Virus record (IMG/VR): IMGVR_UViG_3300023174_000071
Span: 1 to 64,000 of that record
DNA length: 64,000 nt
Direction: 5' to 3' (one strand)
Source of the DNA: a virus
Shown here piece by piece: positions 31,095 through 50,309 of the stretch. A program made the position numbers and the translations under genes. Under the pieces are notes generated by a model. That model worked only from the letters and a program-made list of their open reading frames with translations. It was not told the DNA's origin and did not search any database. Each line of letters begins with the position of its first letter. The first letter of the stretch is position 1.

Positions 31095-32102
31095 ATGTCG
31101 AGAAAGTTTGTTTTGAAAAGTTTGTTTAAAAAAGCGTCCGGGCAAAATCCAACTCAAGAAGTTCATATTTTTGATTTTGATTCTTGTCTTTTCCGTTCGC
31201 CTTATCCTCCGGCAGATTGGAAGGGTGGTTGGTGGGGAAGTTTAATTTCTCTGGATGAGCCATGTGTTCCTGCTGAGCCGGATTCTTCTTGGTGGAATTC
31301 GGAAGTTGTTTCTCAAGCTAAGGCGTCCATTCAAAATCCGGATGTTTACACGATGCTTATGACAGGTCGGCAGGATCATATTTTCCGATATCGAATTGTT
31401 GATCTTCTAAATCAAGCCGGTTTGAATTTTGATTTTATTCGCCTAAGCGATTCGGATAACACTCGAGATTTCAAATTTTCAAATATGAAAAATAAGATCT
31501 TTGAGTTTCTTAGAAAGGACAGCCTATCTATCGGAAAGATTAAGATTTGGGACGATAACAAATCGTATCTTAACTATTATAAAAAAGCTTTAGAGGAATT
31601 GTTTCAAAAAATTCCTGACCCAACAAAGAGGCCGATTGTTGAGGTTTTCCATGTTGTAGCGAAATCGAAGCCGGCCCTATCTTCGCAACCTGAAGGCGAA
31701 CATAAAATTAAAAAGAATGGTTACCTTGGTTTGTTTTTGGATTCTCAATCTAAGGCGGATTTGATTTATCATTTTCCGCAAGAATATGAAAACCCTTATG
31801 GTGAGCATGTCACTTTGCTTTTCAAACCATCAGAAGCTGTTAAATCTATTGTTATAGATTCTGGGTTGATTGGAAAAGAATATCCAATTCAGATTGTTGG
31901 TTATGCGGCGAGAGATGGTGTTCAGGCAGTTGCTGTGGAAGTGAAAGGCTTGGAAGATTTTCTAATTGAAACAGATCGAATTCTTCATATCACCATATCT
32001 ACATCGAATGACCGCAAACCTGTGGATAGCAACAAGCTATTGATGGAAGGCTTTGAAAAAATTCAAGGTCCGCAGATTCGGGGCATTTTGTTATTCAGGT
32101 AA
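31095..32102 (+). CDS. HAD phosphatase fused to 2H phosphoesterase-like domain (RNA end healing)
   Basis: 335 aa. Starts with the short module MSRKFVLKSLFKKASGQ. The HAD part has motif I HIFDFDSCLFRSP near 23, motif II MLMTGR near 95 and motif IV KIWDDNKSYL near 153, resembling the HAD Swiss-Army-Knife RNA repair family. The C-terminal part has two H-x-T/S motifs, HVTLLF near 238 and HITIST near 298, the paired signature of 2H phosphoesterases that open 2',3'-cyclic phosphates. Together these could heal cleaved RNA before ligation. ATG at 31095 (AAAGG upstream). Confidence 0.8.
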   Translation: MSRKFVLKSLFKKASGQNPTQEVHIFDFDSCLFRSPYPPADWKGGWWGSLISLDEPCVPAEPDSSWWNSEVVSQAKASIQNPDVYTMLMTGRQDHIFRYRIVDLLNQAGLNFDFIRLSDSDNTRDFKFSNMKNKIFEFLRKDSLSIGKIKIWDDNKSYLNYYKKALEELFQKIPDPTKRPIVEVFHVVAKSKPALSSQPEGEHKIKKNGYLGLFLDSQSKADLIYHFPQEYENPYGEHVTLLFKPSEAVKSIVIDSGLIGKEYPIQIVGYAARDGVQAVAVEVKGLEDFLIETDRILHITISTSNDRKPVDSNKLLMEGFEKIQGPQIRGILLFR

Positions 32103-32154
32103 TTATTTTCCAAATATTGTCGTACAATCGTTTATAAGTTTGGAAAAGAACATC

Positions 32155-34551
32155 ATGAATTCTGGTTTAAGTGTAGCTTCTCGAAGAATTATTTTAAAAA
32201 CATTACAAAAATATGCTCAGCAATATTGGGGCAACTCTGGTGCTGGCATCTTATTTATTTGTAGCGAAGATAACACCTGTCTTTTAGCCTTAAGGTCTTC
32301 TGGCGTTAATGAGCCCGGAACTTGGGGAGTTCCGGGTGGGGCTATAGAGAAAGGTGAATCACCAGAAATTGGCGCAGAAAGAGAGGTTAAAGAAGAGTTT
32401 GGTTCATTACCGTCTTCATTTGAAGAGGTAACCAGAACTAAATTTAAATCCGATAATGATTTTGAATATACAACTTTTATTTATGATATTTCAAAAGATG
32501 AAAAAAGAAATTGGTCAAAAAGGATTAAATTAAATTGGGAGAATGATCAATTTAAATGGTTTGATTTTTCAACCTTGCCATCAAATTTACACTTTGGCGT
32601 TCAAAAAGTAAAGCAGCTTTTAGTGGAACAGTCCAACTTGTTTTTATTTCCCGAACGAAAAAACAATTGGGATCATTATCGGAATATATTGTCCAAGCTA
32701 AAAACTTCCGTTAAAAAAGAAAATCAGCAGATTTTTAATTCTTTAATTTCTGAATTAGAAAACCCTCCCCAAACCGAAGGGAGAGAGCAGTTAGTTAACT
32801 ATTCGAAATTAATTTCTGATAAAATGTTAGACTTATCTAAGTCATTATCTTCAGCAGGCGAAGAAGATATTGCTAAAAAAATTGAAGTTGCAGCAAACTC
32901 AATCGTTAAAGAACTTGATCGTGATATGGTGGAAAGCGAACTTGTAAGTAAAGAGCAGGCGACAGATAAATTTCTTTATCATGGAACAAATTTTGGAGAT
33001 GTTCTTTCGCTATTAACAACCAAAACATTCCAGCCTACTGGAACATACAAGAAGGTATCGCTAACAACTAGTTTTGATTTGGCTTTAAAATTTGGCGATA
33101 CAGTTTTAGCTTTTGATGCTGATAAGCTAAAAGCGAAAGGTGCAAGAAAGATGCAATACGGAACAACGGATGAGGTTGCAAAAGCTAATTCTGAAGGCCG
33201 AGATGAAGATTCATTAGATCATCCCGAAGGCCCTATTATTCTAGATATATACAAATATGAGCAAGAGTGGTCTATTCGAACTCCATTTTCATTTGATCTA
33301 CAAGACCTTGATAGAATTTATTTCGTCTGTGATCCTAATCGTAAATATGGAAAAGAATCAAATACTTATGATGAAGCCATGGACCTTGTTCACTCGATTG
33401 TTGGAGACGAAGTCCCTCTTGTCTGTTCGAGCATAAAAGCAACAGCGCCATTTTATCCAGATCAATCTTCTAGAGTTTCTTCTGGTATCATTGGTTTGAA
33501 ATCATTTTTATTTACAAATATTCTCCGTGCATGTTCTGACTTAAAAGATATAAGACTTGAATATTTTAAAATAATGGAAAGACACGGTATACCAAACGAG
33601 TATATCAAATATGACCGTCTATACTCCTATTTAAATAATCTTATAAGTTTATTTAATGAAATGGAGACCGTTAAGAATGACCTTAATTTTTCATATGTAA
33701 ATAAAGATAGAGGCAAAGCTTCGGTCATTTTGAGATTAGATTCTTTATTATCAAGAATTCTTGGCTCAAACGAAATGAGTGAAGGTGAATCTTCACAAAA
33801 TAGTTTAACGGGGATTTCGGAGTTTACATATAGAGAATACTCTTATAGTGATTATTCGGCCTCGGCGCAGAAAGAAATAGAAGCTTTCGTAGAAAATCTA
33901 AATGAATATATTAAAGCTTTAATTTCAGAGCTAAAGAACAAGGTAAGTTTTTTTAAGCAAACTTCGAGTGAAGCAATAAAATTTTCAGATAAAGAATCTC
34001 TATATCCTTATATTTTTAATGATATATCTCTTCCGCCGTTTCTTAAGAGTAAGTTGTACGCCAAGAGTTCATCTTTATTTTCAGAAATATATAATGATTA
34101 TTTGAATGGCAATCTTTCTAATTATGGCGATGATTATAGAATCAAAAATAGACTGGAATCATTAGCAGAAAAAGCTCCGCCTGATGCTATCCCAACAGAG
34201 CTTCTAAAAGACAGACCAATAATTTTAATTGATCATATAAATCCAGATCTTTTTTCTGATCAGCAAATTAAAGATGCGCTATCAAGTCAAGATAACTATA
34301 ATGCTGATTGGATATTTAACTACAGATACGGCTTTGACAAAACAAAATTTCCGGCGCTCGATGATGCAAAAAAATACTTTGAAGAATGTGAACAGTCATA
34401 TCCCGGTTGCGCAAAAGATACCTTGAAATCTATAAAGGATATAAAATCAAAAGATTTTTACATGAGAGTGTTTAAAGTTTTGGGGCGTCAAGACTTAATT
34501 AATGATATAACAGATTTGATTGAGTTTTTGGAACAGCTATCTGCGAATTAA
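32155..34551 (+). CDS. NUDIX hydrolase fused to ADP-ribosyltransferase-like domain and long helical C-terminus
   Basis: 798 aa. Residues 5-20 repeat the short module (VASRRIILKTLQKYAQQ). A NUDIX domain follows with a complete box GGAIEKGESPEIGAEREVKEEFG near 61-83. After a helical linker comes FLYHGTNFGDVLSLL near 275, VSLTTSFDLALKFGD near 300 and YKYEQEWSIRTPF near 365, resembling H-G-T, S-T-S-like and E-x-E elements of ADP-ribosyltransferases. The last 400 residues are Ser/Asp/Tyr-rich and helical without recognised domain. Start chosen at 32155; an in-frame ATG at 32053 would overlap the upstream gene by 50 nt. Substrate unknown; NAD-related or protein modification is inferred. Confidence 0.7.
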   Translation: MNSGLSVASRRIILKTLQKYAQQYWGNSGAGILFICSEDNTCLLALRSSGVNEPGTWGVPGGAIEKGESPEIGAEREVKEEFGSLPSSFEEVTRTKFKSDNDFEYTTFIYDISKDEKRNWSKRIKLNWENDQFKWFDFSTLPSNLHFGVQKVKQLLVEQSNLFLFPERKNNWDHYRNILSKLKTSVKKENQQIFNSLISELENPPQTEGREQLVNYSKLISDKMLDLSKSLSSAGEEDIAKKIEVAANSIVKELDRDMVESELVSKEQATDKFLYHGTNFGDVLSLLTTKTFQPTGTYKKVSLTTSFDLALKFGDTVLAFDADKLKAKGARKMQYGTTDEVAKANSEGRDEDSLDHPEGPIILDIYKYEQEWSIRTPFSFDLQDLDRIYFVCDPNRKYGKESNTYDEAMDLVHSIVGDEVPLVCSSIKATAPFYPDQSSRVSSGIIGLKSFLFTNILRACSDLKDIRLEYFKIMERHGIPNEYIKYDRLYSYLNNLISLFNEMETVKNDLNFSYVNKDRGKASVILRLDSLLSRILGSNEMSEGESSQNSLTGISEFTYREYSYSDYSASAQKEIEAFVENLNEYIKALISELKNKVSFFKQTSSEAIKFSDKESLYPYIFNDISLPPFLKSKLYAKSSSLFSEIYNDYLNGNLSNYGDDYRIKNRLESLAEKAPPDAIPTELLKDRPIILIDHINPDLFSDQQIKDALSSQDNYNADWIFNYRYGFDKTKFPALDDAKKYFEECEQSYPGCAKDTLKSIKDIKSKDFYMRVFKVLGRQDLINDITDLIEFLEQLSAN

Positions 34552-34553
34552 TC

Positions 34554-34979
34554 TCATTTCGAAAAAATGATGAGGCATCCTGCGAAAATTAGGATGCCAC
34601 CAAATACAACTTCTTTTGAAACGGTTTGGTTAAATAGTAACCAGGAAAATATAATAACAAAAAATGGATAAGAGATTTCTAGCATAGCGGCGGTGGATGA
34701 GCCTATTTTTACAATCGCTGAAAATGCAAAAAGACTAGCCAAGATAGATAAAGAATGGGCGGCGAAAGTTAATCCAACCGTTTTTAGATCGGCTTCTTCT
34801 CCAAAAAACTTCTGCAAATTAAATCCACGATAGGCAAAAAATATCATGGAGAAAGTTAAGGCCAAGACTCCATTTACAAAGATGATGGCATTTGGAGTTA
34901 ATGTTTTTAGAAATTTTCCATCCACCGCATAAACGAATCCCCATAATAATGCGGCAAGCACGCAAAATAAATAAGCCAT
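34554..34979 (-). CDS. EamA/DMT-type small transporter
   Basis: 141 aa with four or five membrane segments (YLFCVLAALLWGFVYAV, IIFVNGVLALTFSMIFFAY, FFVIIFSWLLFN, FGGILIFAGCLIIFS). The LLWG start, SISYPFF-like Pro segment and final GGxLIxxG are EamA half-repeat features. This is a single repeat, so it would dimerise. Substrate unknown. Confidence 0.78.
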   Translation of the reverse strand: MAYLFCVLAALLWGFVYAVDGKFLKTLTPNAIIFVNGVLALTFSMIFFAYRGFNLQKFFGEEADLKTVGLTFAAHSLSILASLFAFSAIVKIGSSTAAMLEISYPFFVIIFSWLLFNQTVSKEVVFGGILIFAGCLIIFSK

Positions 34980-35053
34980 ATCTCCACCCTTCTAAAATGT
35001 CGGCAGAGAATAGTAGGATTAGGTGCTAATGTGTTTGATTAAAATAAGAGAGA

Positions 35054-35968
35054 ATGATGATGCAAGAACGGTTGAGAAAACTTTATTCTTTTTTGATTTC
35101 TGGTGGCTATTCAGATCAGGCGAATCAATTAGTTAAAACGGCGGCACCATTGGATATGTTTTACCCGGAATCTAAAGACTTATCTAATTGGCAAGATTGG
35201 ATGAGCAATCTGGTTACGCCAATTGTTATATTTAGTTTTGACTCTTCGGAATTAAAAGCTTCAGATATCAATAAAATGAGAAAAGTATTCGGCCATTCAG
35301 ATGATGAAGTTGAATTTGAAGAGGGCGAATATGATGTTGCGGTTCAGCCTTCATCTATGTTTTCCAATAGCAAAAAAGTCGCTACTGCAAATATATCTGA
35401 TTTTATTTCAGCATTTCCAGAATTTGGGGCGAAGCTTAAATTAAAATCATTAGATATTAATGATATTGTTTTAATGCTTTATAATAAGAAGCCAATCCAA
35501 ATGGGTTCGGTTACCTTTGATAGATCCCCGCAATATTTCGTCCATGACATCTTTCATTTCTTCGAAGAATTTAATCAAGACTTTGTTGCAAAATTTATTT
35601 TATCTATAAGTGATTTTTTAAAATTTGCATTGTCTTGTTATGAAGATGAATCAGGAAAATCGCCGGAACAAAATCTTTTTAAGAAATCATATTGGAAATT
35701 CTTTACAGGATTTTATTCTTTAGAGACGGATGCTAACGCTGACCTTTTCTCCATTGCAGCAAAAGGTGATTTTAAAAAGAGCTTTATGATTCCTGATGAG
35801 CTTTCTTTTAACGATAAGATTTATAAACTTGATCCTGAAAATAAATCAGAAATCATTAATCGATTTGAATCGCTAAATGGTTCTATAAATAAAATGTTGA
35901 AAAATTCGGATAATGATCCGCTAAAAGATTATAAGGGGAAAGTTTTGCTTCACGACTTTGTTCCGTGA
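35054..35968 (+). CDS. Hypothetical protein with N-terminal helical module
   Basis: 304 aa. Residues 1-32 (ERLRKLYSFLISGGYSDQANQLVKTAAP) match the recurrent Leu-rich/Gly/Ala module. The rest is a folded alpha/beta protein with a YFVHDIFHFFEEFNQDF segment containing His-Asp and His, possibly metal binding. No family recognised. Three adjacent ATGs at 35054-35062 leave the exact start open. Confidence 0.65.
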   Translation: MMMQERLRKLYSFLISGGYSDQANQLVKTAAPLDMFYPESKDLSNWQDWMSNLVTPIVIFSFDSSELKASDINKMRKVFGHSDDEVEFEEGEYDVAVQPSSMFSNSKKVATANISDFISAFPEFGAKLKLKSLDINDIVLMLYNKKPIQMGSVTFDRSPQYFVHDIFHFFEEFNQDFVAKFILSISDFLKFALSCYEDESGKSPEQNLFKKSYWKFFTGFYSLETDANADLFSIAAKGDFKKSFMIPDELSFNDKIYKLDPENKSEIINRFESLNGSINKMLKNSDNDPLKDYKGKVLLHDFVP

Positions 35969-36202
35969 TTAGGAGCGGATTGTTTTCTTAAAAACGGTCT
36001 CTCCGTTTTTCTTCTTGATGTAAATTTTTGCCGACTCAAAATCTCCATCATAGATGTAGTTCAGATGCTCTCGGATAGCCTCTATAAAGGCTTTAATGTC
36101 TAGACTATCCCATCCGCCTAGATCTTGTTTATCTCCTGCTATAACACCATCCGCAATCAATTCAACGCTATCGTGATTACGATCCCAATGAGCCATGGCC
36201 AT
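35969..36202 (-). CDS. Hypothetical protein, 77 aa
   Basis: Small acidic protein with SLDIKAFIEAIREHLNYIYDGDFESAKIYIKKK, helical. Convergent with the upstream plus-strand gene, stops adjoining. No family recognised. Confidence 0.55.
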   Translation of the reverse strand: MAMAHWDRNHDSVELIADGVIAGDKQDLGGWDSLDIKAFIEAIREHLNYIYDGDFESAKIYIKKKNGETVFKKTIRS

Positions 36203-36266
36203 TCCTGTTGATGAAGGAAATTAATGGTAACACAAAATCCCATTCAAAGCAAGTGCTAACTTTTAG

Positions 36267-36743
36267 CTACTCTTCGAAATCAGGAAGATCATCTGATTGT
36301 TTCGTTTCGCTAAAGTTTGCGACAACCGTTTCGCCACAGATGATTTTTCTTGTGGCATCCAATTCTTCTTTCTTGAATCCATCGCTATATTGCTTAGCTA
36401 AAGTCAAAAGTTCTTGAGCAGAAGCGAAGTCATTTTCCATCGCTTTCTGGCGGCTTTCTTCAATTAATTCTTTAGAGCGGATGGATGCTCGAAATACAGA
36501 AACCCATGAGTTTAAATTTTCAATTGTTTCAAGAATGGAGGCTTCAATATATGAAAAGTCTCCATCAATTTCTTTCCAGTCTTCGGATAGTTTGGCTATA
36601 GCTTCATATGCAGCAAACCCGGAAGGATCATCGGAAAAGACATTGAATAAGTTTCCGTTAAACTCATCTTCCGGCGATATGATTAATTTTTCAATAATTA
36701 TATTTTCCAAAGTGAACTCTCTCTTTAACATTTCAAGTAACAA
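36267..36743 (-). CDS. Hypothetical protein, 158 aa
   Basis: Acidic helical protein with repeated Glu/Ala/Ser helices (IRSKELIEESRQKAMENDF, AQELLTLAKQYSDG). No motif recognised. Divergent from the paralogue block starting at 36801. Confidence 0.6.
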   Translation of the reverse strand: MLLEMLKREFTLENIIIEKLIISPEDEFNGNLFNVFSDDPSGFAAYEAIAKLSEDWKEIDGDFSYIEASILETIENLNSWVSVFRASIRSKELIEESRQKAMENDFASAQELLTLAKQYSDGFKKEELDATRKIICGETVVANFSETKQSDDLPDFEE

Positions 36744-36800
36744 CCATTTCTCTTGCTCTCATTAACTGTTCTTGCTATATTCGCCAACAGAGAGTTATGA

Positions 36801-37319
36801 ATGCAAAATAAGTTTTCACATTTAGAGATTGTTGAGTTGATAACAGAAACCTTTAATATAGCGAATCATTTCAACCTTAAACTTTATAGCGCATCATATG
36901 ATGGATTAAAAAATCGTCTTGTTTCTGTTCGTTGGTTGAAAGATGAAGAAGATTATATTATCAGAAAATCTCTGAATCTTAAAACAGAAGATATTCTACT
37001 TCCGCCCAACGCTAGAAATAATAATTTTTGTATTTATTCTCATGCTGAATCATTTGTTGATGAAGTCATTTATCAGATTGTAATTTCATTTAAAGCTGAT
37101 TCTGGGAAAATAATTGGAGAATTTTCTTTTGTAGCCGATATACTGGATGACGATGATCTATTTTCATCGCCTTCTTTTTGGGTTTGCGCAAAAAATGAAA
37201 GGCTAACGGATCAAGATAGAATCTCTTGGTTGCTTGATGCAACGGAGGTTGATGATATCAAAAAATTTATTGTAAGCAGAATCATGCCGGCAACCATCAA
37301 CAGGCCGGAATGGAGATAG
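36801..37319 (+). CDS. Tandem paralogue family member 1
   Basis: 172 aa. Begins FSHLEIVELITETFNIANHFNLKLY, predicted helix then strand, and ends VDDIKKFIVSRIMP, the position where others carry a LKxFI-x-N-hydrophobic ending. The middle is beta-rich and acidic. First of seven consecutive same-strand genes of similar size; function unknown. Confidence 0.65.
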   Translation: MQNKFSHLEIVELITETFNIANHFNLKLYSASYDGLKNRLVSVRWLKDEEDYIIRKSLNLKTEDILLPPNARNNNFCIYSHAESFVDEVIYQIVISFKADSGKIIGEFSFVADILDDDDLFSSPSFWVCAKNERLTDQDRISWLLDATEVDDIKKFIVSRIMPATINRPEWR

Positions 37320-37320
37320 T

Positions 37321-37731
37321 TTGAATATTCCAAACTATGAACAAAAAAGCATATCTGAAAAAGAAACAAAGGAAATGCTTAAATATATTCGTAAGAATTT
37401 CAAAAATAATAAATTGAAATTTCAAGAGGTCATGTATGTTGACTCTTCAGAGCAACCTCCGATTCAAACTGGTTGGTCAAACCTTATTTCCAATTTTCCT
37501 GATTACTTGAAGCTTATTGCTAATGTAAAAACAAAAGATGGCGTTTTAATCTTATCCTTCTTTAACACCAAATATGGTTTTCACATTCAAGGCAACTGGA
37601 CTTCTAAGGTTAAGGATGGATCAGTTGAGCATTACGAATATTCTCTTCCGTTAGGTTCAGCGATTGTAGACAAAGAAGTTCCAGAATATATTACAGAATT
37701 TACAATTCGGCATGCTCATATATTTTGTTGA
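37321..37731 (+). CDS. Tandem paralogue family member 2 (TTG start)
   Basis: 136 aa. TTG at 37321 lies 5 nt after GGAG and directly after the previous stop. Opens with KSISEKETKEMLKYIRKNFKNNKLKFQ, helix then strand, and ends VPEYITEFTIRHAHIFC, parallel to the NLHIF endings of later members. Somewhat shorter than its relatives. Confidence 0.62.
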   Translation: MNIPNYEQKSISEKETKEMLKYIRKNFKNNKLKFQEVMYVDSSEQPPIQTGWSNLISNFPDYLKLIANVKTKDGVLILSFFNTKYGFHIQGNWTSKVKDGSVEHYEYSLPLGSAIVDKEVPEYITEFTIRHAHIFC

Positions 37732-37790
37732 TTAACGATTCTTCTATTTTCGAGTGATATATAGGAAGTAGCCCTTCCGCTGAGAGTAAC

Positions 37791-38306
37791 ATGATAGTAA
37801 GGACTGAGTTTACAAGCGACCGGCTTTATGAGTTTCTTGAAAACTTAACCAAGTTATTTTCAGAATATTCTTTTGTTGCTATATTTTATTTGGGGAGCAA
37901 GATTTATTCTCCAAAGATAATTCATTATATGAAAACAGAAGGGGCGGAGATTAAGGATTCGACATTAGATGTTGGAAATCCAGAATCTATATCTTTTTGT
38001 TATACAGATTTGTCAGAATTAATTGCAGCGGTAAAGCAGCATCAAGAGCAACTTTATATCTCTGATGAGACTGTTTATTGCAATCATTCTTTTAGCGTTC
38101 AGATTTTTCAGCCGAATGAGAAGATTCTAATATTGTTTAGAAACAATTTTGAATATAGCGCAAATTGGTTATTTGATGTTTGTTATTTTGAATATGAAAA
38201 AGATGAGGGCAGTTTGATTATGGAAGCAAGCGATCTGCTGACGCATTCTCAAAATAAAGCATTAAATTTCTTAGTCATAAATAATCTTGATATGTTTCTA
38301 GATTAA
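37791..38306 (+). CDS. Tandem paralogue family member 3
   Basis: 171 aa. Starts SDRLYEFLENLTKLFSEYSFVAIFYLGSK and ends QNKALNFLVINNLDMFLD, the family pattern. The centre has YISDETVYCNHSFSVQIFQPNEKILILF. Function unknown. Confidence 0.66.
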   Translation: MIVRTEFTSDRLYEFLENLTKLFSEYSFVAIFYLGSKIYSPKIIHYMKTEGAEIKDSTLDVGNPESISFCYTDLSELIAAVKQHQEQLYISDETVYCNHSFSVQIFQPNEKILILFRNNFEYSANWLFDVCYFEYEKDEGSLIMEASDLLTHSQNKALNFLVINNLDMFLD

Positions 38307-38334
38307 TTTCTTCAGTTAAGTTACAATAAAAACT

Positions 38335-38817
38335 ATGTCTTATACATTCAAAACAGAAACCGTTAGCATGGAAGAGATTTGTGAGCTTCTAAATGAAATA
38401 AAAAAAGAATGTTTTAAGTTTAAAGTTTGCATTAAAGATATTTACACTATGGATGTTGTAACTTTTTCTTTTTCAGAAAAGGGCGCAAAGCATCCTTGGG
38501 ATCCTTTCGACTTCTCAAAAACCTGCTCTGATGTTTTAAAAAACCAAACAGGAGAGTTGGTGGGCGAGATATCGTATTGCTTTAATAAAGATGAAGAAAA
38601 ATGGTTGATCATTGAGATAGACTCAGATGGAAAGGAGTTGTATATCTCGGCCTATATAAAGGTTTTAATTCATTACTTTACTGAAGACTATAGCAAAAGG
38701 ACAATGTCGGTATCGGAATCTGTAAGCTCAATTCTATCTGAAGATTGCCCGATTAAATTATCTCAAAACATAATTCTTTCTTTGCTAAGGTATCCTTATC
38801 TATTCTCTGTTCCCTGA
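38335..38817 (+). CDS. Tandem paralogue family member 4
   Basis: 160 aa. Starts MEEICELLNEIKKECFKFKVCI and ends LSQNIILSLLRYPYLFSVP, matching the family layout with divergent residues. Beta-rich middle with paired Trp-containing strands. Confidence 0.62.
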   Translation: MSYTFKTETVSMEEICELLNEIKKECFKFKVCIKDIYTMDVVTFSFSEKGAKHPWDPFDFSKTCSDVLKNQTGELVGEISYCFNKDEEKWLIIEIDSDGKELYISAYIKVLIHYFTEDYSKRTMSVSESVSSILSEDCPIKLSQNIILSLLRYPYLFSVP

Positions 38818-38868
38818 TTCGTGAATCTAAAAATATGGTTGAATTTTGGAATCATATGAGGGTTTAGG

Positions 38869-39345
38869 ATGGCAAGAAGAATATATCATAACGAATTAGC
38901 GGCGTTTCTTGTAAAATTGCTTAAAGCTTTTCCTACAAGAACAGCCCTTATTTTAAAGCAAAAACATGGCGAGAGAATCGTTCAAATAAAATATCCCCAA
39001 GAAATATTGAACAAAATCTCTCTGGACTTCGCTCGCCATAATCGCTTTCTAAAAAGTGAGAGCGCTTCTTCGTTATTAAAGATTGGCTTAAATCAACTGC
39101 TATCTTTTCGCCCTAATGTTTCGCATCAGATAATGGTTACGTTATCTTCCGATTGTCATTTTGTTATTCAAATCTTGACGATGGATGTTTCATTTGAAGA
39201 AGGCATTCAGGCGATCATTTCATCTCCGGCGTTTTACATTGGAGAAGAATTAGTCTTTGATATCGACAAAGCCACAAAGAGTGGTAGTATGAATAAAACG
39301 CAAGCAGAAATGGTTAAGCGACTTTTCGCCAAGAGAATCGAATGA
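38869..39345 (+). CDS. Tandem paralogue family member 5
   Basis: 158 aa. Starts RIYHNELAAFLVKLLKAFPTRTALILKQ and ends KTQAEMVKRLFAKRIE; the final helix is present but the aromatic end is lost. More basic than its relatives. Overlaps the next start by 4 nt. Confidence 0.6.
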   Translation: MARRIYHNELAAFLVKLLKAFPTRTALILKQKHGERIVQIKYPQEILNKISLDFARHNRFLKSESASSLLKIGLNQLLSFRPNVSHQIMVTLSSDCHFVIQILTMDVSFEEGIQAIISSPAFYIGEELVFDIDKATKSGSMNKTQAEMVKRLFAKRIE

Positions 39346-39833
39346 ATAAATCCTTAGTGTTTGATGAGTCAGAATTTAAGGAATTCACAAAAGAACTAAA
39401 GAAAGCTTTTGGTTCTTATGTTGGCTATTACCTGCCGGATGCTGCTTGGGGAGAATTTTCAAATAGAGAATATTTTGGAAAGACTCTAAAGAATGGCGAT
39501 GAGATTATCGAAAAATTCAAGCGAGCAATAGTTCAACCTGAAAAGATAGATGGAGTTATGTCTGGCGGTATTTTAATATCCGCCTTTCTTCCGCTTCATT
39601 TGTTTATATGTTTTAAGCAGAATCGACCGTGCTTTCTCTTCTTCTCTATTGAAATTAGATATTCAAAGAATCTGCAGAATATAAATTTTTCAATAATAGA
39701 TGTATCATGGGAAGAAGAGTTGGAAGATTTAACAGTAGAAACAACAAGACATATTCAGCCGATCTTGGATAAAGATTCTGTTCCAGAAGAGTTGAAAGCT
39801 TTTTTAATCTCAAATCTACATTTACTTAAGTGA
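39342..39833 (+). CDS. Tandem paralogue family member 6
   Basis: 163 aa. Starts ESEFKEFTKELKKAFGSYVGYYLPD and ends VPEELKAFLISNLHLLK, the clearest form of the family ending. Overlaps members 5 and 7 by 4 nt, so these are one operon. Confidence 0.68.
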   Translation: MNKSLVFDESEFKEFTKELKKAFGSYVGYYLPDAAWGEFSNREYFGKTLKNGDEIIEKFKRAIVQPEKIDGVMSGGILISAFLPLHLFICFKQNRPCFLFFSIEIRYSKNLQNINFSIIDVSWEEELEDLTVETTRHIQPILDKDSVPEELKAFLISNLHLLK

Positions 39834-40339
39834 AAATGTTGTTACTAGAAAAAATAGCGAGCATTCAAATTGATGTAGATGCAGCAAGAGAATTGCTGTT
39901 AGACATACCATGCTGGTTAGATTTTTCTATGTTCAAAGTCTACGCTGCAAAGTATAAGAATTTTGAGGTTAATTCTAAAAACGATCTACATCATTTGTTC
40001 TCACAGCTATCTCGGGATTGTTTTAATATTGAGAAGTTAGCTGTAACTCCAAGAACAGAAAAAGACTGCCTTCATCATGCTTTGACCATGATTCCGACAG
40101 CCTTATGTGCTATTGATTTATATTCTAAATTTTCGGAATCATATCTGAAATTAAATTTCGATTATGATTTTGATCCAACAAATGCGAATAGATTTGGAGT
40201 TAATCTATATTTGGCTCGGGTTCATTACGCTCACTCTGAGCTTCCGCTTATTTACAATTCCAATATCGAGCAGGCTATGGGCGAAGTCTCAGAAGATTTA
40301 AAGATTGTATTAATTAACAATCTTCATATTTTCCGTTAG
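39830..40339 (+). CDS. Tandem paralogue family member 7
   Basis: 169 aa with GTG start overlapping the previous stop (ATG at 39836 possible). The N-terminus differs (Asp/Ala/Leu helix), but the end SEDLKIVLINNLHIFR is nearly the same as member 6. Converges on the minus-strand pair at 40336-40758. Confidence 0.66.
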   Translation: MKMLLLEKIASIQIDVDAARELLLDIPCWLDFSMFKVYAAKYKNFEVNSKNDLHHLFSQLSRDCFNIEKLAVTPRTEKDCLHHALTMIPTALCAIDLYSKFSESYLKLNFDYDFDPTNANRFGVNLYLARVHYAHSELPLIYNSNIEQAMGEVSEDLKIVLINNLHIFR

Positions 40340-40539
40340 GCTTCAGCGGAAGTTTGAGTTAGAACCTTTTCCAGATATCTAATCAGCTTTGAGCTTCTTC
40401 GAAAAGATGAAGATAAGATTTTCCAACTTTCAATAGCATCTGGGGCGTCAAGAGCTTTCTGTAAAGAGATATCGACTTCTTTTAAGATGCCGATATAGCA
40501 AACGCTGTTGATTGCAAAATTCCAACTATCTGAACTCAT
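40336..40539 (-). CDS. Twin small protein A, 67 aa
   Basis: Helical. Its DSWNFAINSVCYIGILKEVD start aligns by eye with ISWIDMLQAICYIQNGFVIN of the neighbouring 67-aa protein at 40555; both end with a Glu/Leu helix and short Ala tail. A likely tandem duplication. Confidence 0.55.
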   Translation of the reverse strand: MSSDSWNFAINSVCYIGILKEVDISLQKALDAPDAIESWKILSSSFRRSSKLIRYLEKVLTQTSAEA

Positions 40540-40554
40540 AGTTCACCAGTTTGA

Positions 40555-40758
40555 TTAAGCCATAGCGTTGGTGTTCGCCAAATCTTCTTCAAGCTTTAGA
40601 AGCTCGCTTTTCGCAATTTCAATTTCATCCATTAGGCGAAAGCTTTCCATGCTTCCAATTTGCTTTGTGTCGAGCTCATCAATCATCTTATTGATGACGA
40701 AACCATTTTGAATATAACAAATAGCTTGCAACATATCAATCCAAGAAATTTCGTTCAT
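40555..40758 (-). CDS. Twin small protein B, 67 aa
   Basis: Same length and same W-x6-10-CYI arrangement as its neighbour at 40336, with a C-terminal helix EIAKSELLKLEEDLA. GGAGTGACTG precedes the ATG. Function unknown. Confidence 0.57.
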   Translation of the reverse strand: MNEISWIDMLQAICYIQNGFVINKMIDELDTKQIGSMESFRLMDEIEIAKSELLKLEEDLANTNAMA

Positions 40759-40847
40759 CAGTCACTCCATTCTCGAAGGTTCACAAACTATATAACTAAG
40801 ATGGAGTGCAAGTGCAATGAATATTGTTGTGAGTTGCGATTTTGAAA

Positions 40848-41378
40848 TCACAAATGAAACAAATCAATATTAAGAAGAATGAATTTTTTCAACTCATCGG
40901 ATTTGCTTTTCTCAAGAAGCAACTCAACGGCGGCATTATTTCTTCCATGAAAGCTTGTGCTGGCGCTCCAATTGCAAGAGTTGCTATATCCAAACTTTAA
41001 ATCAATAAAATATTTGAAATTTAGAAAGGATTCTTTGCTTAAAAATAGCTGAATCTCGCAGTATTCGCTTCCCTCTTCGGTCGCTATATCTTTATTGAAA
41101 TTCATTTCCAATATTGATTCGTCGGATAGCTGTTCGATATCTATGTCAAATAAAAAATTTAACGCTTCAGGTTTTTCTTTAACATCTATCTTTAGGTCGG
41201 GGTATACCAACTCATCTTTGTAAGTAACGGGCTTAGCTTTTTCTCTACAAAATGAGTCATCTAGTCTTTGATTCCATGACGCATAATGAAATGGCCTTAT
41301 AATTTCAACGCAAGAAAATGTTTCTGTTGCTGCTCTTATGAATTGTTCGATATCATCTTTTATCTCTTCATAGTTCAT
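40848..41378 (-). CDS. Paralogue family member 8, opposite strand
   Basis: 176 aa. Starts YEEIKDDIEQFIRAATETFSCVEIIRP and ends KSDELKKFILLNIDLFHL, the family pattern, despite lying on the minus strand. Centre holds CEIQLFLSKESFLNFKYF. Indicates that the family spread by duplication and inversion. Confidence 0.66.
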   Translation of the reverse strand: MNYEEIKDDIEQFIRAATETFSCVEIIRPFHYASWNQRLDDSFCREKAKPVTYKDELVYPDLKIDVKEKPEALNFLFDIDIEQLSDESILEMNFNKDIATEEGSEYCEIQLFLSKESFLNFKYFIDLKFGYSNSCNWSASTSFHGRNNAAVELLLEKSKSDELKKFILLNIDLFHL

Positions 41379-41432: not shown

Positions 41433-41807
41433 ATGGCTAGATTAAAAGATATTGCAAAAATTTCAACAACAATAGATGAACCAGATTTTTGGATTTGTAT
41501 AAAAGGAAGCGAAAAAAACTTAGGCGAAGTTCGAAAAACAAAGCCAGAAAAATCAACATCTTGGGCGGGAATAAAGGTGAAAGAAGAATATCTAGATCGT
41601 ATTCTTCCGAATTACCTGTTTTATGTTATGATGTATTTTTATAATTCCGGCATCTTTCGTCAACTTAGCATGGGAACGTTAGACTTACAGCATCTAAGAA
41701 TTGAAGATATAGGTTCAAAAATACAACTTGATATACCAGAATCTATAGAAAGCAAAGCATCTAGAAGATTTGTTTTAAATCAATTATTTAAATTTGCATC
41801 AAAATAG
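41433..41807 (+). CDS. HsdS-like half-domain protein with C-terminal sorting-type module
   Basis: 124 aa. RLKDIAKISTTIDEPDFWI at the start and VKEEYLDRILPNYLFYVMMYFYNSGIF, GTLDLQHLRIEDIGSKIQLDIP later resemble a target-recognition domain of a type I restriction specificity subunit. The C-terminus SKASRRFVLNQLFKFASK repeats the module found at the N-termini of 31095 and 32155. Too short to be a full HsdS. Could compete with host restriction subunits, which is inference. AGGAGTCCACCTC precedes the ATG. Confidence 0.6.
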   Translation: MARLKDIAKISTTIDEPDFWICIKGSEKNLGEVRKTKPEKSTSWAGIKVKEEYLDRILPNYLFYVMMYFYNSGIFRQLSMGTLDLQHLRIEDIGSKIQLDIPESIESKASRRFVLNQLFKFASK

Positions 41808-45152: not shown

Positions 45153-45412
45153 CTTATCTCTCCAGTTTATTCTTTTAGTCTTTAGAGTGATTATCTTTTT
45201 TCTTAAGGAGTGTAGAGTGGTGAGTGACAAGTAGATCACTATGTCTCCGTTTTAGACTTGTCAAGATCTAAAGTTTATGTTTTATAACTCTTTCTATTAG
45301 CACATTTTATGTTTAACCAGCTTGTAGATAGATTTTAGCGTGGAAATTTTTTATTGGCGCTGGTTCTGTTTCCCGGCAAAAATAAATTTTTCACACAACA
45401 AGAAAAAAATCA

Positions 45413-45441
45413 TTGACGGAATGAGTGCGGTCAGATAGTTT
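45413..45441 (+). promoter_or_regulatory. Sigma-70-type promoter
   Basis: TTGACG at 45413-45418, 17-nt spacer, TAGTTT at 45436-45441, about 50 nt upstream of the ATG at 45490. Confidence 0.5.
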
Positions 45442-45489
45442 CTTCTTGTCAGCGGTAAGCTGAACAAAAAAACTAGACTGGAGAAAGAA

Positions 45490-46896
45490 ATGAACGCCGA
45501 AACTGTTCCCACTCACTCTATTGTTAATTCTGCTGGAGATGCTGTTCGCGTTGGTGTTGGAACAGATCTATTTCCACTTCTTTCTTCTCCGGAATTTTCT
45601 TACACCAAGGGTTTCCGAATCGTTGAACTTTCCAAGGTGAACACTACGCAGGATGGGGATACGGTTTCGGCAGTTTCGATTGACCGCCAAGAGCGTCAGC
45701 GAAATTCTCTTGAAAACTTTGGCCAAAAGCACGGCTTGAATCTTAAGGGGTTTGCTTGGGCTCAACCTGTTGTTGCCCGTGGAATCCGAATCACCAAGGA
45801 TGGCGATGAACGTTTTCTCGCTTCTCGTGAGGCTCACAATCAGCGCAACTTGGTAGAAGAAGATCTTTTGTCGGTAGCCACCGCTGTTGATGCGGAAAAG
45901 CGAGAGGATGTTACGGTTGGCACAAAAGAACTTTCTATGTCTGAAGATGGTCGTTTGATTTATTCGGGTGGTCAGACCATTCTTGAAGAACCGGGTATGA
46001 ATAGTCTTCTTTCTTTTGTTAATGATGTTCTTCCCCGTTCCGGCTCTCTGATGCGAATTCTTTCCGCTAAGGAACGTGCGAATCTTTTTAATCAGCAAAT
46101 TGCGAAGGTTACCGATAATCGTCCGTTTGTTCTCCGTACTCGCCAAGATGCTGGTGGAAACCGAACCACTTATGCGGCAGTTACCTCTGGGTATGCAGCT
46201 TGCGATGCGAATTATGTTTGTCGAGATGTTGCTAAGGCTGTAAAGGGAATGGGTTTGCGAGGAGAGGTTGCTTACAATCCAAACTCTACACTTCTTCAGA
46301 TTAATGGCGGAATCCACGCTGAAAATGTTGTTGATTTTGGTGCGGGTGATGCTTTCCGTGCGGGGCTTTGGTTCCGAACGGGTGATGCTCGAAATTCAAA
46401 CTTTAGCGGCGGCATTTTCGTTGAGCGTAACCTTTGCCGTAACTTTATTGTTCTTAGTTACGATCAGGTAAAGACTCTTTCTATTCGTCACTTTGGAAAG
46501 GGTTTTTACGACCGAGTTCAGAAGGGCGTAGAGAAGCTTGTTCCTCAAGTTGAAGAAATGCTTCAGATTTTTTGCAACGATTGGGGTCTCTTGCGTAAGG
46601 TTGAGATTGGTCAAGTTTATAAGTGCGAAGAGAATGGTCGCTCTCTTGATGCCCTCTCTGCTTTGCGTTCTATCTCTATGGAACGAGAGTTGGATAAGCT
46701 TACTATCGGTCAGAAGGAACGTGAAAAGGTTCTGGTCGCTGCTTACCAACAGGAACCGGGAGATACTCTTGCTGACCTTGTTAATGCCGTAACTCGTGCT
46801 CATGAATTTGTGGAAATTGATCAGCGTCATGAGTGGGAAGTTGCGGGTGGTCAACTTATGAATCGCCTCACGAAGATGGCTCTCGTCGCAAATTAA
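45490..46896 (+). CDS. DUF932-like phage protein, strongly expressed
   Basis: 468 aa, with GGAGAAAGAA before the ATG. Alpha/beta throughout; TYAAVTSGYAACDANYVCRDVAKAV near 220 and AGLWFRTGDARNSNFSGGIFVERNLC near 295 recall DUF932-type proteins of phages and plasmids, though the match is only by eye. Codons are visibly biased to CGT, CTT, GGT, GTT and ACC compared with neighbours, suggesting high expression. It has its own promoter and terminator. Function unknown. Confidence 0.68.
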   Translation: MNAETVPTHSIVNSAGDAVRVGVGTDLFPLLSSPEFSYTKGFRIVELSKVNTTQDGDTVSAVSIDRQERQRNSLENFGQKHGLNLKGFAWAQPVVARGIRITKDGDERFLASREAHNQRNLVEEDLLSVATAVDAEKREDVTVGTKELSMSEDGRLIYSGGQTILEEPGMNSLLSFVNDVLPRSGSLMRILSAKERANLFNQQIAKVTDNRPFVLRTRQDAGGNRTTYAAVTSGYAACDANYVCRDVAKAVKGMGLRGEVAYNPNSTLLQINGGIHAENVVDFGAGDAFRAGLWFRTGDARNSNFSGGIFVERNLCRNFIVLSYDQVKTLSIRHFGKGFYDRVQKGVEKLVPQVEEMLQIFCNDWGLLRKVEIGQVYKCEENGRSLDALSALRSISMERELDKLTIGQKEREKVLVAAYQQEPGDTLADLVNAVTRAHEFVEIDQRHEWEVAGGQLMNRLTKMALVAN

Positions 46897-46917
46897 CAAT
46901 TTCTGAAAAGATTGTTT

Positions 46918-46956
46918 AAGGCCGACAATGCTTAATTGCTTGTCGGCTTTTTCTTT
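46918..46956 (+). terminator. Rho-independent terminator
   Basis: GCCGACA (46921-46927) pairs with TGTCGGC (46941-46947), followed by TTTTTCTTTTT. Confidence 0.88.
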
Positions 46957-47025
46957 TTCAGATGGTTGTTTTCCAAAATCTAATGTTGCATGGGGGCTGT
47001 CAATCAAAAGAGGATTGCAGGGGAT

Positions 47026-48576
47026 ATGTGGGCTTTTTTATTTTTATTATTGGTAGGATGTTCTGAGAATCAGCTAAGACAAATTCAGCATACGGAACCG
47101 AATATATCTGTAACTCCGGTAGATATTGATTTTGGAACAGTAAATGTTTCCGAACCCGATAATCAAATCTTTCAGGAAGTTGAAGTTGAAAATAAAGGAA
47201 ATGAAACATTAGAAATAAGATCTATTTCTTTTGAATCTCCTCAGTCTTTATTTTCAATTACTCAACCGGATTCTTATTCTTTAGAACCATTAGAAAAGAC
47301 ATCCTTTTTAATTTTTTATAACCCTCAGTCTTTTTCTTCCGACTTTTCTACTTTGACAGTTTTCTCAAATGATCCGGAAACTTCAAAGCTTGATATTTCT
47401 TTAAAAGGTCAAGGTGGCGCTCCATCCATTCTTGTGGAACCAGAGTCTGCAGATTTTAATCAAACTCCAGTAGGCTGTTCCGACCAGATGACCGTAAAGA
47501 TATCAAATGTTGGAAACGTTCAATTATCTATTGATTCAATTGATTTTTTCGTTTCTTATCCAGAAGATATGTCTATCGATACAGCTTTAATTGACCCTTC
47601 TTTGTTCCCTATGGTCATTCAGCCTTTAGAATATATTGAGCTTCCAGTTAAATATATTCCAGATGATACCTTAATTGACTCTTCTTTCTTAAAGATAGAA
47701 TCTGATGATCCAGCAAGACCGGTTGTTTTTTCGGAACAATTTGGAGAGGGCGTTTATACAAATTGGAAAAAAGATATCTTTGAGAAAGATAGCACGCCGG
47801 TTTCTGACATCTTATTCGTAATCGACAACTCGGGTTCAATGGCTGAAGAACAAGCAAATATGGCGACAAACTTTGATTACTTTATGAATGCCTTAACTGC
47901 ATTATCTGTCGATTACCATATTGCAGTTATAACGACCGATTCTCCAGTTTTCAGAGGCCCCATTATTACAAATTTAAATCCAGATCCTATTTCAGAATTC
48001 GCTTATCAGGTTCAAGCTGGAACGAATGGTAGTTCATATGAAATGGGAATTGAAATGGCTTATCTTGCAACAAAAAGCGGAGGTCAAGCCTCTCCGGGTT
48101 CCTCTTTCTTTAGAAGCGCAGCTTATTTTTCAATCATCTTTATTTCCGATGAGGAAGATTCTTCTCCAAAATCTCATATGGATTATCTTTCCCATTTTCA
48201 ATCTTTAAAGGCAGCATCAAATTTAATTGTTTCTCACGCTATAGCTGGAGATTACCCATACGGATGTTCTACCGCCACATTTGGTGAGGGATATTTTGAA
48301 TTAGTAAATGATATGTCTGGTGATTTTCTTTCAATCTGCTCTTCTAGTTGGGGCGTCGGAATGGAATCTCTAGCCGTACAGGCCGCTGGGACTTCAACAT
48401 TTGTTTTATCAGATCAGCCAATTGAAGATTCCATTTCTGTATCTATTGATGGAGTGGACATATCTTTAGGTTGGATATATGATGTATCCTCAAATTCTAT
48501 TGTTTTTTCTTCGGGTTATGAACCTCAAGAAGGTCAAACAGTAGAAGTTAACTACGCCGTTAGAGAAGAATGCTAA
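47026..48576 (+). CDS. Lipoprotein with immunoglobulin-like repeats and von Willebrand A domain
   Basis: 516 aa from the ATG at 47026 (AGGGG upstream). The signal MWAFLFLLLVGC ends in a lipobox. Two beta-sandwich repeats follow (VDIDFGTVNVSEPDNQ and SADFNQTPVGCSDQM), as in choice-of-anchor D or ASH-type domains. A VWA domain starts DILFVIDNSGSMAEEQ near 262 with its MIDAS and a later FISDEEDSSP. Such proteins are typical of predatory and myxobacterial-type cell surfaces. On a phage it may alter host adhesion or block reinfection; inferred. Confidence 0.86.
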   Translation: MWAFLFLLLVGCSENQLRQIQHTEPNISVTPVDIDFGTVNVSEPDNQIFQEVEVENKGNETLEIRSISFESPQSLFSITQPDSYSLEPLEKTSFLIFYNPQSFSSDFSTLTVFSNDPETSKLDISLKGQGGAPSILVEPESADFNQTPVGCSDQMTVKISNVGNVQLSIDSIDFFVSYPEDMSIDTALIDPSLFPMVIQPLEYIELPVKYIPDDTLIDSSFLKIESDDPARPVVFSEQFGEGVYTNWKKDIFEKDSTPVSDILFVIDNSGSMAEEQANMATNFDYFMNALTALSVDYHIAVITTDSPVFRGPIITNLNPDPISEFAYQVQAGTNGSSYEMGIEMAYLATKSGGQASPGSSFFRSAAYFSIIFISDEEDSSPKSHMDYLSHFQSLKAASNLIVSHAIAGDYPYGCSTATFGEGYFELVNDMSGDFLSICSSSWGVGMESLAVQAAGTSTFVLSDQPIEDSISVSIDGVDISLGWIYDVSSNSIVFSSGYEPQEGQTVEVNYAVREEC

Positions 48577-48607
48577 TTTTTAGAAAAGCAATGATAGGAG
48601 ATATATA

Positions 48608-48976
48608 ATGTCAAAACGACTTCTAGGTGTTATGGTTAAGGGTCCAAAGGTTCTCGACAAATCACGAGTTCCTTATGCTATCAAGCAGGCCGCAAAGAAA
48701 GCTCCATTTGAATTTGATGAGCAGAAAGTTGCTTGGGGCGCTCAGGTTGTTCAAGAATTTATTTCTTTTTGGGAAAACCCAACGCATCTAGACGTTGTGA
48801 AGATGCCAGATCCTGACGATAGCAAGAGCGTTATTTTATTTGCTGGCGATTCTGTAGAAGTTCAGATGGGCTCTGCGGGTAAGCTGGAATATCAGCATGA
48901 ACCAAAGGGTCGGGCTTATCAAATTCTCCGAACCTCAATGCTAGCAGGATTTCTTCCTCTATTTGGTTTGCGCTAG
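48608..48976 (+). CDS. Hypothetical protein, 122 aa
   Basis: Basic N-terminus (KRLLGVMVKGPKVLDKSRVPYAIKQAAKK), then a folded domain with EFISFWENPTHLDVVKM. AGGAGATATATA precedes the ATG. Overlaps the convergent cupin gene by 18 nt. No family recognised. Confidence 0.65.
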   Translation: MSKRLLGVMVKGPKVLDKSRVPYAIKQAAKKAPFEFDEQKVAWGAQVVQEFISFWENPTHLDVVKMPDPDDSKSVILFAGDSVEVQMGSAGKLEYQHEPKGRAYQILRTSMLAGFLPLFGLR

Positions 48977-49237
48977 TTTTTTAATTTCAACAACAAGTGG
49001 CTCCGAACCTTTTATAACTCGGTGCCACGTTCCTTGAGGGATGAAGATTTGTTCTTCGTCCCTTAAGTTTTTTGGAAGTTCATTATCGAATTGTAATTTC
49101 CATCCGCCACATTTCTTGATGGTAACGATTCGATCTTCTAAGTCTGTATGCCAAATTAGTTCTTGAGATGGAGTTGTTGGATCGAATGTTCTTTCCAGAA
49201 CTCCATTTTCATTTCTTTCTTTGAATGGAAAATTCAT
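48959..49237 (-). CDS. Small cupin-like protein
   Basis: 92 aa. Beta-strands with W-H-T-D at one end and PQGTWHRVIKGSEPLVVEI near the C-terminus, matching cupin motif 2 (P-x-G-x-x-H). One-domain cupins bind metal or small molecules. Convergent with 48608. Confidence 0.7.
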   Translation of the reverse strand: MNFPFKERNENGVLERTFDPTTPSQELIWHTDLEDRIVTIKKCGGWKLQFDNELPKNLRDEEQIFIPQGTWHRVIKGSEPLVVEIKKLAQTK

Positions 49238-49249
49238 TTGGCTAAAATT

Positions 49250-49900
49250 TTACCAATTTGGTGGAAATCTGCAAGCCCAATATCCGGCGGTTGTTTTATC
49301 TTTCTTTGCTTTGCAGTTATGTCTTGCTCTAAAACTTTTTCTTGCCTTAGCGTTACCCGCTCTTGTTTTTAGATTCGGATCGCCAAATGTGATTCGCTTT
49401 ACTCTGTCGCCATCTTTAACATAAACAACAGATTTTTTCTTTCCATATCCAGGTTCGCCCTTTCTTATGTATCTTGGCTTATTGATGGAAACATTTTTTC
49501 CTTTATATTCCGCCGCAATCTTAAGCATTTCATCTTCGTTTTCTAAAGCAATTGGGCAATCGAGAGGAACGAGTTGACCTTCATATTCGGCAAACTTTCC
49601 AAAATCACTATCTAAAATTTCATGGCTAGATTTGTCTACGATGAGTTTGCCTTGTTCAACCATTTCTCTGGCTTCATTAATTAGATAGAAGTGACTCTCT
49701 GAAAATTCTCTAAAAACAGGATCGGTGAGGGGGATATCATTTTCTAAATGGTAAGCTAAACCATCTGAAAATGAAGCGGTCTTATCGAGTAGTATGATAT
49801 TGCGACCGTTACCGTCTAAAATTCCCTGAAGAAGTAAAGCTTCTTTTTTAAGATCTGCTTGTTTTAGAAATTGAATAAGATGATTTATTTTTTCTTTCAT
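49250..49900 (-). CDS. Phage protein with DUF5872-like C-terminus and N-terminal helical module
   Basis: 216 aa from the ATG at 49900. Residues 1-26 (KEKINHLIQFLKQADLKKEALLLQGILDG) belong to the recurrent Leu-rich module. The C-terminus has GDPNLKTRAGNAKARKSFRARH, NCKAKKDKTTAGYWAC, a Cys/Lys motif I have seen in virion-associated proteins of phages and large eukaryotic viruses. Possible virion component; unproven. Confidence 0.72.
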   Translation of the reverse strand: MKEKINHLIQFLKQADLKKEALLLQGILDGNGRNIILLDKTASFSDGLAYHLENDIPLTDPVFREFSESHFYLINEAREMVEQGKLIVDKSSHEILDSDFGKFAEYEGQLVPLDCPIALENEDEMLKIAAEYKGKNVSINKPRYIRKGEPGYGKKKSVVYVKDGDRVKRITFGDPNLKTRAGNAKARKSFRARHNCKAKKDKTTAGYWACRFPPNW

Positions 49901-49949
49901 TTTTGATTCCTCAACTAATATAGTTAGGAATATAGATAGGAGATTTATA

Positions 49950-50309
49950 ATGCTTGAAAAACTCGTAAAAATTGCAAACCGTCTTGACCAACTTGGCGAA
50001 ACCAAGCTTGCCGATGAAGTCGATGCGCTTGTTCGTAAGATCGCTAGCGACCTTCATAAGGGTATGAAGAAGGATGGTGAGATTCTAGAAATTGGAACGC
50101 ACATCGTTCACCCCGGAGAAACCCTTGGCCAAATTACAATTGATCGTAGAGGATCTTTTTCTGAAGTTACGGTTGAAGATAATTTAAAGCTAAATCCAGG
50201 TCTTAATCCTTCTAAATTACAGATAGGTAAAGAAATTAAAGTTTGGCAATCTTCTGCGTTTGAAGGCGGTGTTCCAGTAGAAGGAATGGAGCCTCTTCCA
50301 GAAGTATAA
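49950..50309 (+). CDS. LysM-domain protein with N-terminal helical module
   Basis: 119 aa. Residues 1-36 (LEKLVKIANRLDQLGETKLADEVDALVRKIAS) are the clearest copy of the recurrent module. A LysM domain follows (VHPGETLGQITIDRRG, LKLNPGLNPSKLQIGKEIKV). LysM binds peptidoglycan, so this could be a virion baseplate or cell-wall-associated protein. AGGAGATTTATA precedes the ATG. Confidence 0.85.
   Translation: MLEKLVKIANRLDQLGETKLADEVDALVRKIASDLHKGMKKDGEILEIGTHIVHPGETLGQITIDRRGSFSEVTVEDNLKLNPGLNPSKLQIGKEIKVWQSSAFEGGVPVEGMEPLPEV

What the first reader, a model, noticed from the sequence alone, without database searches (positions are those of the whole stretch)
31095..50309. Shared short helical module at the ends of unrelated proteins
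Proteins at 16471, 24677, 31095, 32155, 35054, 49250 and 49950 begin with a Leu-rich helix (examples RKFVLKSLFKKAS, SRRIILKTLQKYAQ, EKLVKIANRLDQLGETKLADE). The HsdS-like protein at 41433 has SRRFVLNQLFKFAS at its C-terminus instead. At least two subtypes exist: SRR/KFVL-K-x-LFK-x-AS, and LxxLGLxxEAxxLxxLL. The partner domains (kinase, HAD-2H, NUDIX-ART, LysM, DUF5872-like) share nothing else. A removable packaging, sorting or import tag is the simplest reading.
Basis: partly seen in the sequence, partly recalled or inferred. Interest (0 to 1): 0.72.

Follow-up and report, generated by a model that had tools for sequence, protein, structure and literature searches.

The report
Cleavable capsid-loading tag of jumbo phages
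Many unrelated proteins of a group of uncultured giant phages carry the same small helical tag followed by a cutting signal that is otherwise concentrated in the phage's own capsid proteins, which suggests that the tag loads a varied cargo into the virus head and is then cut off.

Summary
The window is part of a 128 kb fragment of an uncultured jumbo-phage clade (relatives up to 332-372 kb). Two elements are superimposed.

(1) A ~30-residue helical hairpin (MxKELIKLANxLDxxGLxKEADxLDxxIxKxA). In clade loci it has 152 non-redundant instances on unrelated proteins (72 N-terminal, 54 internal, 26 C-terminal) and no decoy hit at the same score. Here it is clear only at 49950.

(2) A short linear motif, h-x-K-x-A|[S/Q]. 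In four genomes it is enriched in head-morphogenesis proteins (42 vs 5.6 expected) and hairpin-tagged proteins (11 vs 1.0), but not elsewhere (43 vs 37.4). Outside the head module it is enriched in the first 60 residues (27 vs 7.9; this genome 8 vs 1.2).

The motif lies in the major capsid protein N-terminus, just before a conserved portal segment, and at junctions of a fused protein. The clade encodes a head maturation protease.

Best reading: a T4-CTS-like capsid-targeting propeptide system with a new tag and a new apparent protease specificity. Packaging and cleavage are inferred, not shown. The labels DUF5872, HsdS and ART were not supported by Pfam; the 16471 and 24677 tags are weak.

The parts
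31095..31136 (+). N-terminal tag MSRKFVLKSLFKKA|S of the HAD_SAK_1 (HAD/2H-like) protein
   Evidence: h-x-K-x-A|S motif; PF10307 E 6e-20 starts downstream at residue 43
32155..32217 (+). N-terminal tag MNSGLSVASRRIILKTLQKYA|Q of the NUDIX protein
   Evidence: motif; PF00293 NUDIX E 2e-14 from residue 29
35054..35143 (+). N-terminal hairpin-like tag ending LVKTA|A
   Evidence: body homologous from residue 28 to a G003 protein with a different tag-like N-terminus (E 6e-5)
41757..41804 (+). C-terminal tag ASRRFVLNQLFKFASK of the 124-aa protein at 41433
   Evidence: same module as 31095/32155; no Pfam support for HsdS
49775..49900 (-). N-terminal tag of protein 49250-49900 (start ATG at 49900), ending LDKTA|S
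   Evidence: homology to an untagged Flavobacterium phage protein begins at residue 49 and to a clade protein at residue 42, the predicted cut
49950..50045 (+). N-terminal helical hairpin tag MLEKLVKIANRLDQLGETKLADEVDALVRKIA|S of the LysM-like protein
   Evidence: 38-58 bits with the tag profile, no decoy above 12; AlphaFold2 two helices 2-15 and 18-42, pLDDT 82
17002..17088 (-). weak N-terminal hairpin of the kinase-like protein at 16471, without a cleavage-like site
   Evidence: 4-6 bits; 38% over 52 aa to L172 tag protein, E 3e-4
24977..25024 (-). weak N-terminal tag MSKQRYSKIKSLFKAA|T at 24677
   Evidence: sequence shows a variant of the motif; no profile support
   Evidence: motif scan
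39830..39859 (+). additional N-terminal motif LLLEKIA|S (169-aa protein), possibly chance
   Evidence: motif scan

Best explanation
A capsid-loading propeptide system. During head assembly, a short helical tag, in its full form a two-helix hairpin, docks cargo proteins onto the prohead interior or scaffold. The clade's head maturation protease then cuts at h-x-K-x-(A/G)|S/Q, at the end of N-terminal and internal tags, releasing the mature cargo inside the capsid. The cargo (NUDIX, HAD/2H-like, LysM-like, metalloprotease-like, kinase-like and unknown proteins) would probably be ejected into the host with the DNA. Shown here: the tag family, the motif, their restriction to head and tagged proteins, and a protease-like gene in the head module of relatives. 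Inferred: docking partner, cleavage, packaging and ejection.
For: Motif density in four genomes: head module 42 vs 5.6 shuffled, hairpin-tagged proteins 11 vs 1.0, all other 253,000 residues 43 vs 37.4. Non-head proteins: first 60 residues 27 vs 7.9 summed over four genomes, the rest 26 vs 27.9. Over all h.X.A[SQ] words only Lys is markedly enriched at P3, Ala at P1, and Q/S at P1'. In 256 non-redundant sites the signal is confined essentially to P5-P1', with no helix periodicity. The MCP (PHROG 2522, E 2e-73) carries IV[KR]YA[SA] near residue 27 in all eight full-length MCPs aligned. 37 of 58 portals have the strict motif, commonly as K-x-A|SIASPMPGP, kept through upstream length changes; many others have K-x-G or a related variant. 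The hairpin itself sits in head-module proteins, notably the gene after the portal. K-x-A follows 84/126 N-terminal or internal hairpins but only 4/26 C-terminal ones (p 2e-6). Head maturation protease (PHROG 18299, E 1e-11) lies downstream of the portal in relatives. The 1074-aa fused protein carries motifs at the junction where relatives have a separate ORF with a C-terminal or internal tag and the next ORF with an N-terminal tag. Precedents: T4 CTS and SPN3US gp245.
Against: No virion proteomics exists for this clade; no close cultured relative was found (terminase below 60% identity, top hits 24-26%). This fragment ends within the portal, so its own protease and MCP were not seen. The protease assignment rests on PHROG alone: Pfam and PDB gave nothing credible and the AlphaFold2 model is poor (pLDDT 58). 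At the C-terminal tag of 41433 a cut would remove only two residues. C-terminal tags generally lack a site. After many hairpins P1' is not S/Q. In the T4 head region the motif gives 4 vs 1.2 shuffled, so small excesses can arise without this protease. Shuffle-based p-values treat paralogues and orthologues as independent.
Confidence: 0.72

Rival explanations
1. Docking peptide without cleavage: the tags are helical encapsulation peptides that bind the inner capsid or scaffold and stay on the cargo, and K-x-A-S is part of the binding helix.
For: The tag works at N, C and internal positions. The C-terminal tag of 41433 keeps LFKFAS although a cut there would be pointless. Helix 1 of the hairpin itself contains LVKLAN. 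In the MCP the motif lies within a conserved stretch.
Against: The motif has no helix periodicity over 256 sites. In the portal it sits in a Gly/Pro-rich stretch and survives upstream indels. K-x-A is mostly lost when the hairpin is C-terminal. The clade has a head protease.
Confidence: 0.17
2. Sorting or import tag for another compartment, such as a phage nucleus, spindle or membrane.
For: Tubulin homologues occur in three of seven clade records.
Against: The tag and motif are shared with capsid, portal and head-module proteins, and the motif is not enriched in other proteins including the replication genes. No match to phiKZ shell protein PHIKZ054, though this search had no positive control.
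Confidence: 0.06
3. Chance or generic amphipathic helices.
Against: No decoy hits at or above 12 bits against more than 220 real ones; motif enrichment 7-fold in head proteins and none elsewhere.
Confidence: 0.03

Closest known systems
Capsid targeting sequence (CTS) of T4 internal proteins IPI-III and Alt, cut by gp21 (PMC9026906, PMC7411985)
   Same: Short terminal propeptide on otherwise unrelated proteins, shared with the head-assembly pathway; short cleavage motif with P3 and P1 specificity; Alt has propeptides at both ends.
   Different: T4 CTS is ~10-20 residues and cut after (L/I)-x-E; here a ~30-residue hairpin, apparent cut after K-x-(A/G). Tagged proteins often stand in tandem and include fused multi-tag proteins.
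Propeptides of giant phages SPN3US and phiKZ (SPN3US gp245, A-x-E|S, PMC10052503)
   Same: Jumbo phage; MCP and portal N-termini and other head proteins cut by a prohead protease; Ser preferred at P1'.
   Different: The published SPN3US propeptides are not described as one shared recognisable tag; specificity is Glu at P1 rather than Ala/Gly. No sequence comparison of the proteases was made here.
Encapsulation peptides of encapsulins and bacterial microcompartments (from general knowledge, not tested)
   Same: Short terminal helices that load unrelated enzymes into a protein shell.
   Different: Not cut off by a shell protease; not virus-encoded.

Membership tests
T4-type capsid targeting sequence | Short terminal extension shared by otherwise unrelated proteins | tested here: met
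   152 non-redundant hairpin instances, decoys none; partner domains differ
T4-type capsid targeting sequence | Ends in the recognition motif of the phage's prohead protease | tested here: inconclusive
   A motif shared with MCP, portal and head proteins is present; that the protease cuts there was not shown
T4-type capsid targeting sequence | Sequence similarity to T4 CTS and L/I-x-E site | tested here: not met
   Best tag-profile score in the two T4 stretches is 2.9 bits, and these stretches were not checked to include the IP and Alt genes; site is K-x-A, not L/I-x-E
T4-type capsid targeting sequence | Targets cargo into the prohead; mature cargo in virions | not testable with these tools
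   Needs proteomics
Head maturation protease (PHROG 18299) | Sequence match and position in head module | tested here: met
   E 3e-11 and 6e-11 in two relatives, second-best PHROG; family-wide invariant His (DHESS), Ser (GSMGTAV) and PIEYSLVVQPAEP
Head maturation protease (PHROG 18299) | Assemblin-type fold | tested here: inconclusive
   AlphaFold2 pLDDT 58; no PDB or Pfam match
Nucleus-forming phage (Chimalliviridae) import | Chimallin shell protein | tested here: inconclusive
   No match to phiKZ gp54 in seven records, but no positive control

The most novel reading that the evidence does not exclude
A modular capsid-loading and release system used clade-wide by uncultured jumbo phages: one portable hairpin (N-terminal, internal or C-terminal) plus a K-x-(A/G)|S/Q protease site recruits a large, quickly changing set of unrelated enzymes, sometimes fused into polyproteins that are split inside the head, for delivery into the host. 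The protease specificity would be a new one.
Probability: 0.5. Interest if true: 0.82.

Novelty: new variant of a known kind. Interest (0 to 1): 0.7.

Why it matters
Which of the hundreds of unknown jumbo-phage proteins are injected at the start of infection is an open question. A tag that can be read from sequence would turn it into a lookup: tagged genes in metagenomic jumbo phages become candidate injected effectors (counter-defence, RNA repair, nucleotide-signal removal). It would also give a candidate portable signal for loading proteins into large capsids, and a new protease specificity to test.

Tried and rejected

The hairpin alone finds nothing in 50,697 phage records and no confirmed relative in bacterial genomes, so no cultured example with proteomics could be used.

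AlphaFold2 of the protease domain was too poor (pLDDT 58), so no fold search was run. Pfam and PDB gave no credible match for the protease.

Chance helices were rejected by decoys.

A phage-nucleus import signal was considered: tubulin present in some relatives, no chimallin match, motif shared with capsid genes.

The SRR/KFVL subtype as a clade-wide family was rejected: beyond the three founding proteins only weak hits near the decoy level.

Literature searches found no description of this tag, but the library is limited to open-licence papers.

Full report
What the window is. The window is bases 1-64000 of a 128,325-base virus record. The record ends inside the portal gene, after a terminase. 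The terminase finds 79 distinct loci from uncultured phage contigs (mostly 60-71% identical, longest contig 332 kb), while the best matches in phage records are only 24-26% identical. It is therefore a poorly sampled jumbo-phage clade. I read the rest of this record and three long relatives, G001, G002 and G003.

Check of the observation. They end in LFKKA|S, LQKYA|Q, LVKTA|A, LDKTA|S, VRKIA|S and LFKFA|S. 24677 (LFKAA|T) is a variant. 16471 has a weak hairpin and no such site, although its first 50 residues match the tag region of an L172 protein (E 3e-4). The protein at 49250 most likely starts at the ATG at 49900.

Element 1, the hairpin. A profile from nine tags gives 25 hits at or above 12 bits in four genomes and none in reversed or shuffled decoys. 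Rebuilt on the pooled loci, it gives more than 220 hits and still no decoy at or above 8 bits. After removing near-identical copies, 152 instances remain: 72 N-terminal, 54 internal, 26 C-terminal. AlphaFold2 on the tag alignment gives two helices, 2-15 and 18-42 (pLDDT 82). In G003 seven N-terminally tagged proteins lie within 33-43 kb. Partners include LysM, cupin, NUDIX, HAD_SAK, PilZ and cell-wall hydrolase domains, each in one or two of 75 proteins scanned. Contigs found by the tag alone also encode the clade's major capsid protein in 4 of 10 cases, one of them at 57% identity; the others are fragments or give no match. No relative was confirmed in bacterial genomes.

Element 2, the short motif. 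h-x-K-x-A-[SQ] occurs 96 times in the four genomes. Among residues at the third position before the cut only Lys is strongly enriched (96 vs 36), with Ala at P1 and Q/S at P1'. In 256 non-redundant contexts the signal is essentially limited to P5-P1', with Pro somewhat enriched at P5' and P7'; this resembles a protease site more than a helix face. By location: head module 42 sites vs 5.6 in local shuffles; hairpin-tagged proteins 11 vs 1.0; the other 961 proteins 43 vs 37.4. Among non-head proteins, the first 60 residues hold 27 vs 7.9 and the rest 26 vs 27.9; in this genome alone 8 vs 1.2 and 8 vs 5.0 (combined). T4 stretches give 1 vs 2.5 and, in the head region, 4 vs 1.2.

Link to head assembly. 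The major capsid protein (PHROG 2522, E 2e-73) has IV[KR]YA[SA] near residue 27 in all eight full-length MCPs aligned. A divergent 371 kb relative has LVRIAK at the corresponding place. Of 58 portals, 37 have the strict motif in the N-terminal region; it typically sits immediately before SIASPMPGP and keeps K-x-A or K-x-G although the stretch before it varies in length. The gene after the portal carries the hairpin plus K-I-A-Q/E in many relatives. Further downstream lies a long protein whose N-terminal part matches a head maturation protease family (PHROG 18299, E about 1e-11). Its invariant residues include a His in DHESS, a Ser in GSMGTAV and the stretch PIEYSLVVQPAEP; from general knowledge these resemble prohead proteases. 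I could not confirm the fold.

Cleavage or mere docking? Three observations favour cleavage. First, K-x-A follows 84 of 126 N-terminal or internal hairpins but only 4 of 26 C-terminal ones, where no cargo follows (p 2e-6); instances are not fully independent. Second, the 1074-aa protein of this genome (L003:411-3635) starts with a metalloprotease-like domain that in G003 is a separate ORF ending in a hairpin, in G001 a 317-aa protein with an internal hairpin, and in G002 a 259-aa protein. In G001 and G003 the next ORF begins with a hairpin. In the fused version SNKKFISKTA and LNKKFISKKA|Q stand at such junctions. Third, for the 49250 protein homology to an untagged phage protein starts at residue 49 and to a clade protein at residue 42, next to the predicted cut. 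Against: at the C-terminus of 41433 a cut would do nothing useful, and P1' after hairpins is often not S or Q.

Mechanism proposed. The tag docks cargo in the prohead; the head protease trims tags, MCP and portal; mature cargo remains with the DNA and is ejected. This works like the T4 capsid targeting sequence, where N-terminal propeptides of unrelated internal proteins are removed by gp21 after L/I-x-E (PMC9026906; PMC7411985). It also resembles SPN3US, where gp245 cuts MCP, portal and other head proteins after A-x-E with Ser favoured at P1' (PMC10052503). Tag and apparent specificity differ from both, so I file it as a new variant that works like CTS, not as a member of the T4 CTS family. 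The ejection step is inference by analogy only.

Limits. No proteomics, no cultured member, no observed cut. The shuffle tests do not correct for relatedness between the four genomes. The domain labels ART, HsdS and DUF5872 in the finding were not supported by Pfam. Tubulin homologues in three of seven records leave a phage-made compartment possible, and the chimallin search was uncontrolled.

Noticed in passing
L002:15726-17339 and L004:8667-10325 (record positions ~79.2-80.8 kb and ~111.2-112.8 kb): Two different GroEL-type chaperonin genes in one phage genome; G003 also has two such genes (65172 and 126038).
   Followed up: no
window 36801-41378: Run of about eight consecutive similar-sized (~140-175 aa) proteins of unknown function; pairwise similarity is very weak (best E 0.001), so paralogy is not established.
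   Followed up: partly
G001:23090-23584, G002:49693-50181, G005:1393-1884: Tubulin-family (PF00091) proteins in three members of the clade, over the family cut-off.
   Followed up: partly
G001:190713-193380, G003:33283-34053: Several tagged proteins end in a second shared C-terminal motif such as DRINKLAELMSREF or RISKIASLLSGEF; function unknown.
   Followed up: no
L003:411-3635: 1074-aa fused protein with an N-terminal HELAH metalloprotease-like domain followed by what look by eye like repeated domains separated by the motif; domain repeat not tested.
   Followed up: partly
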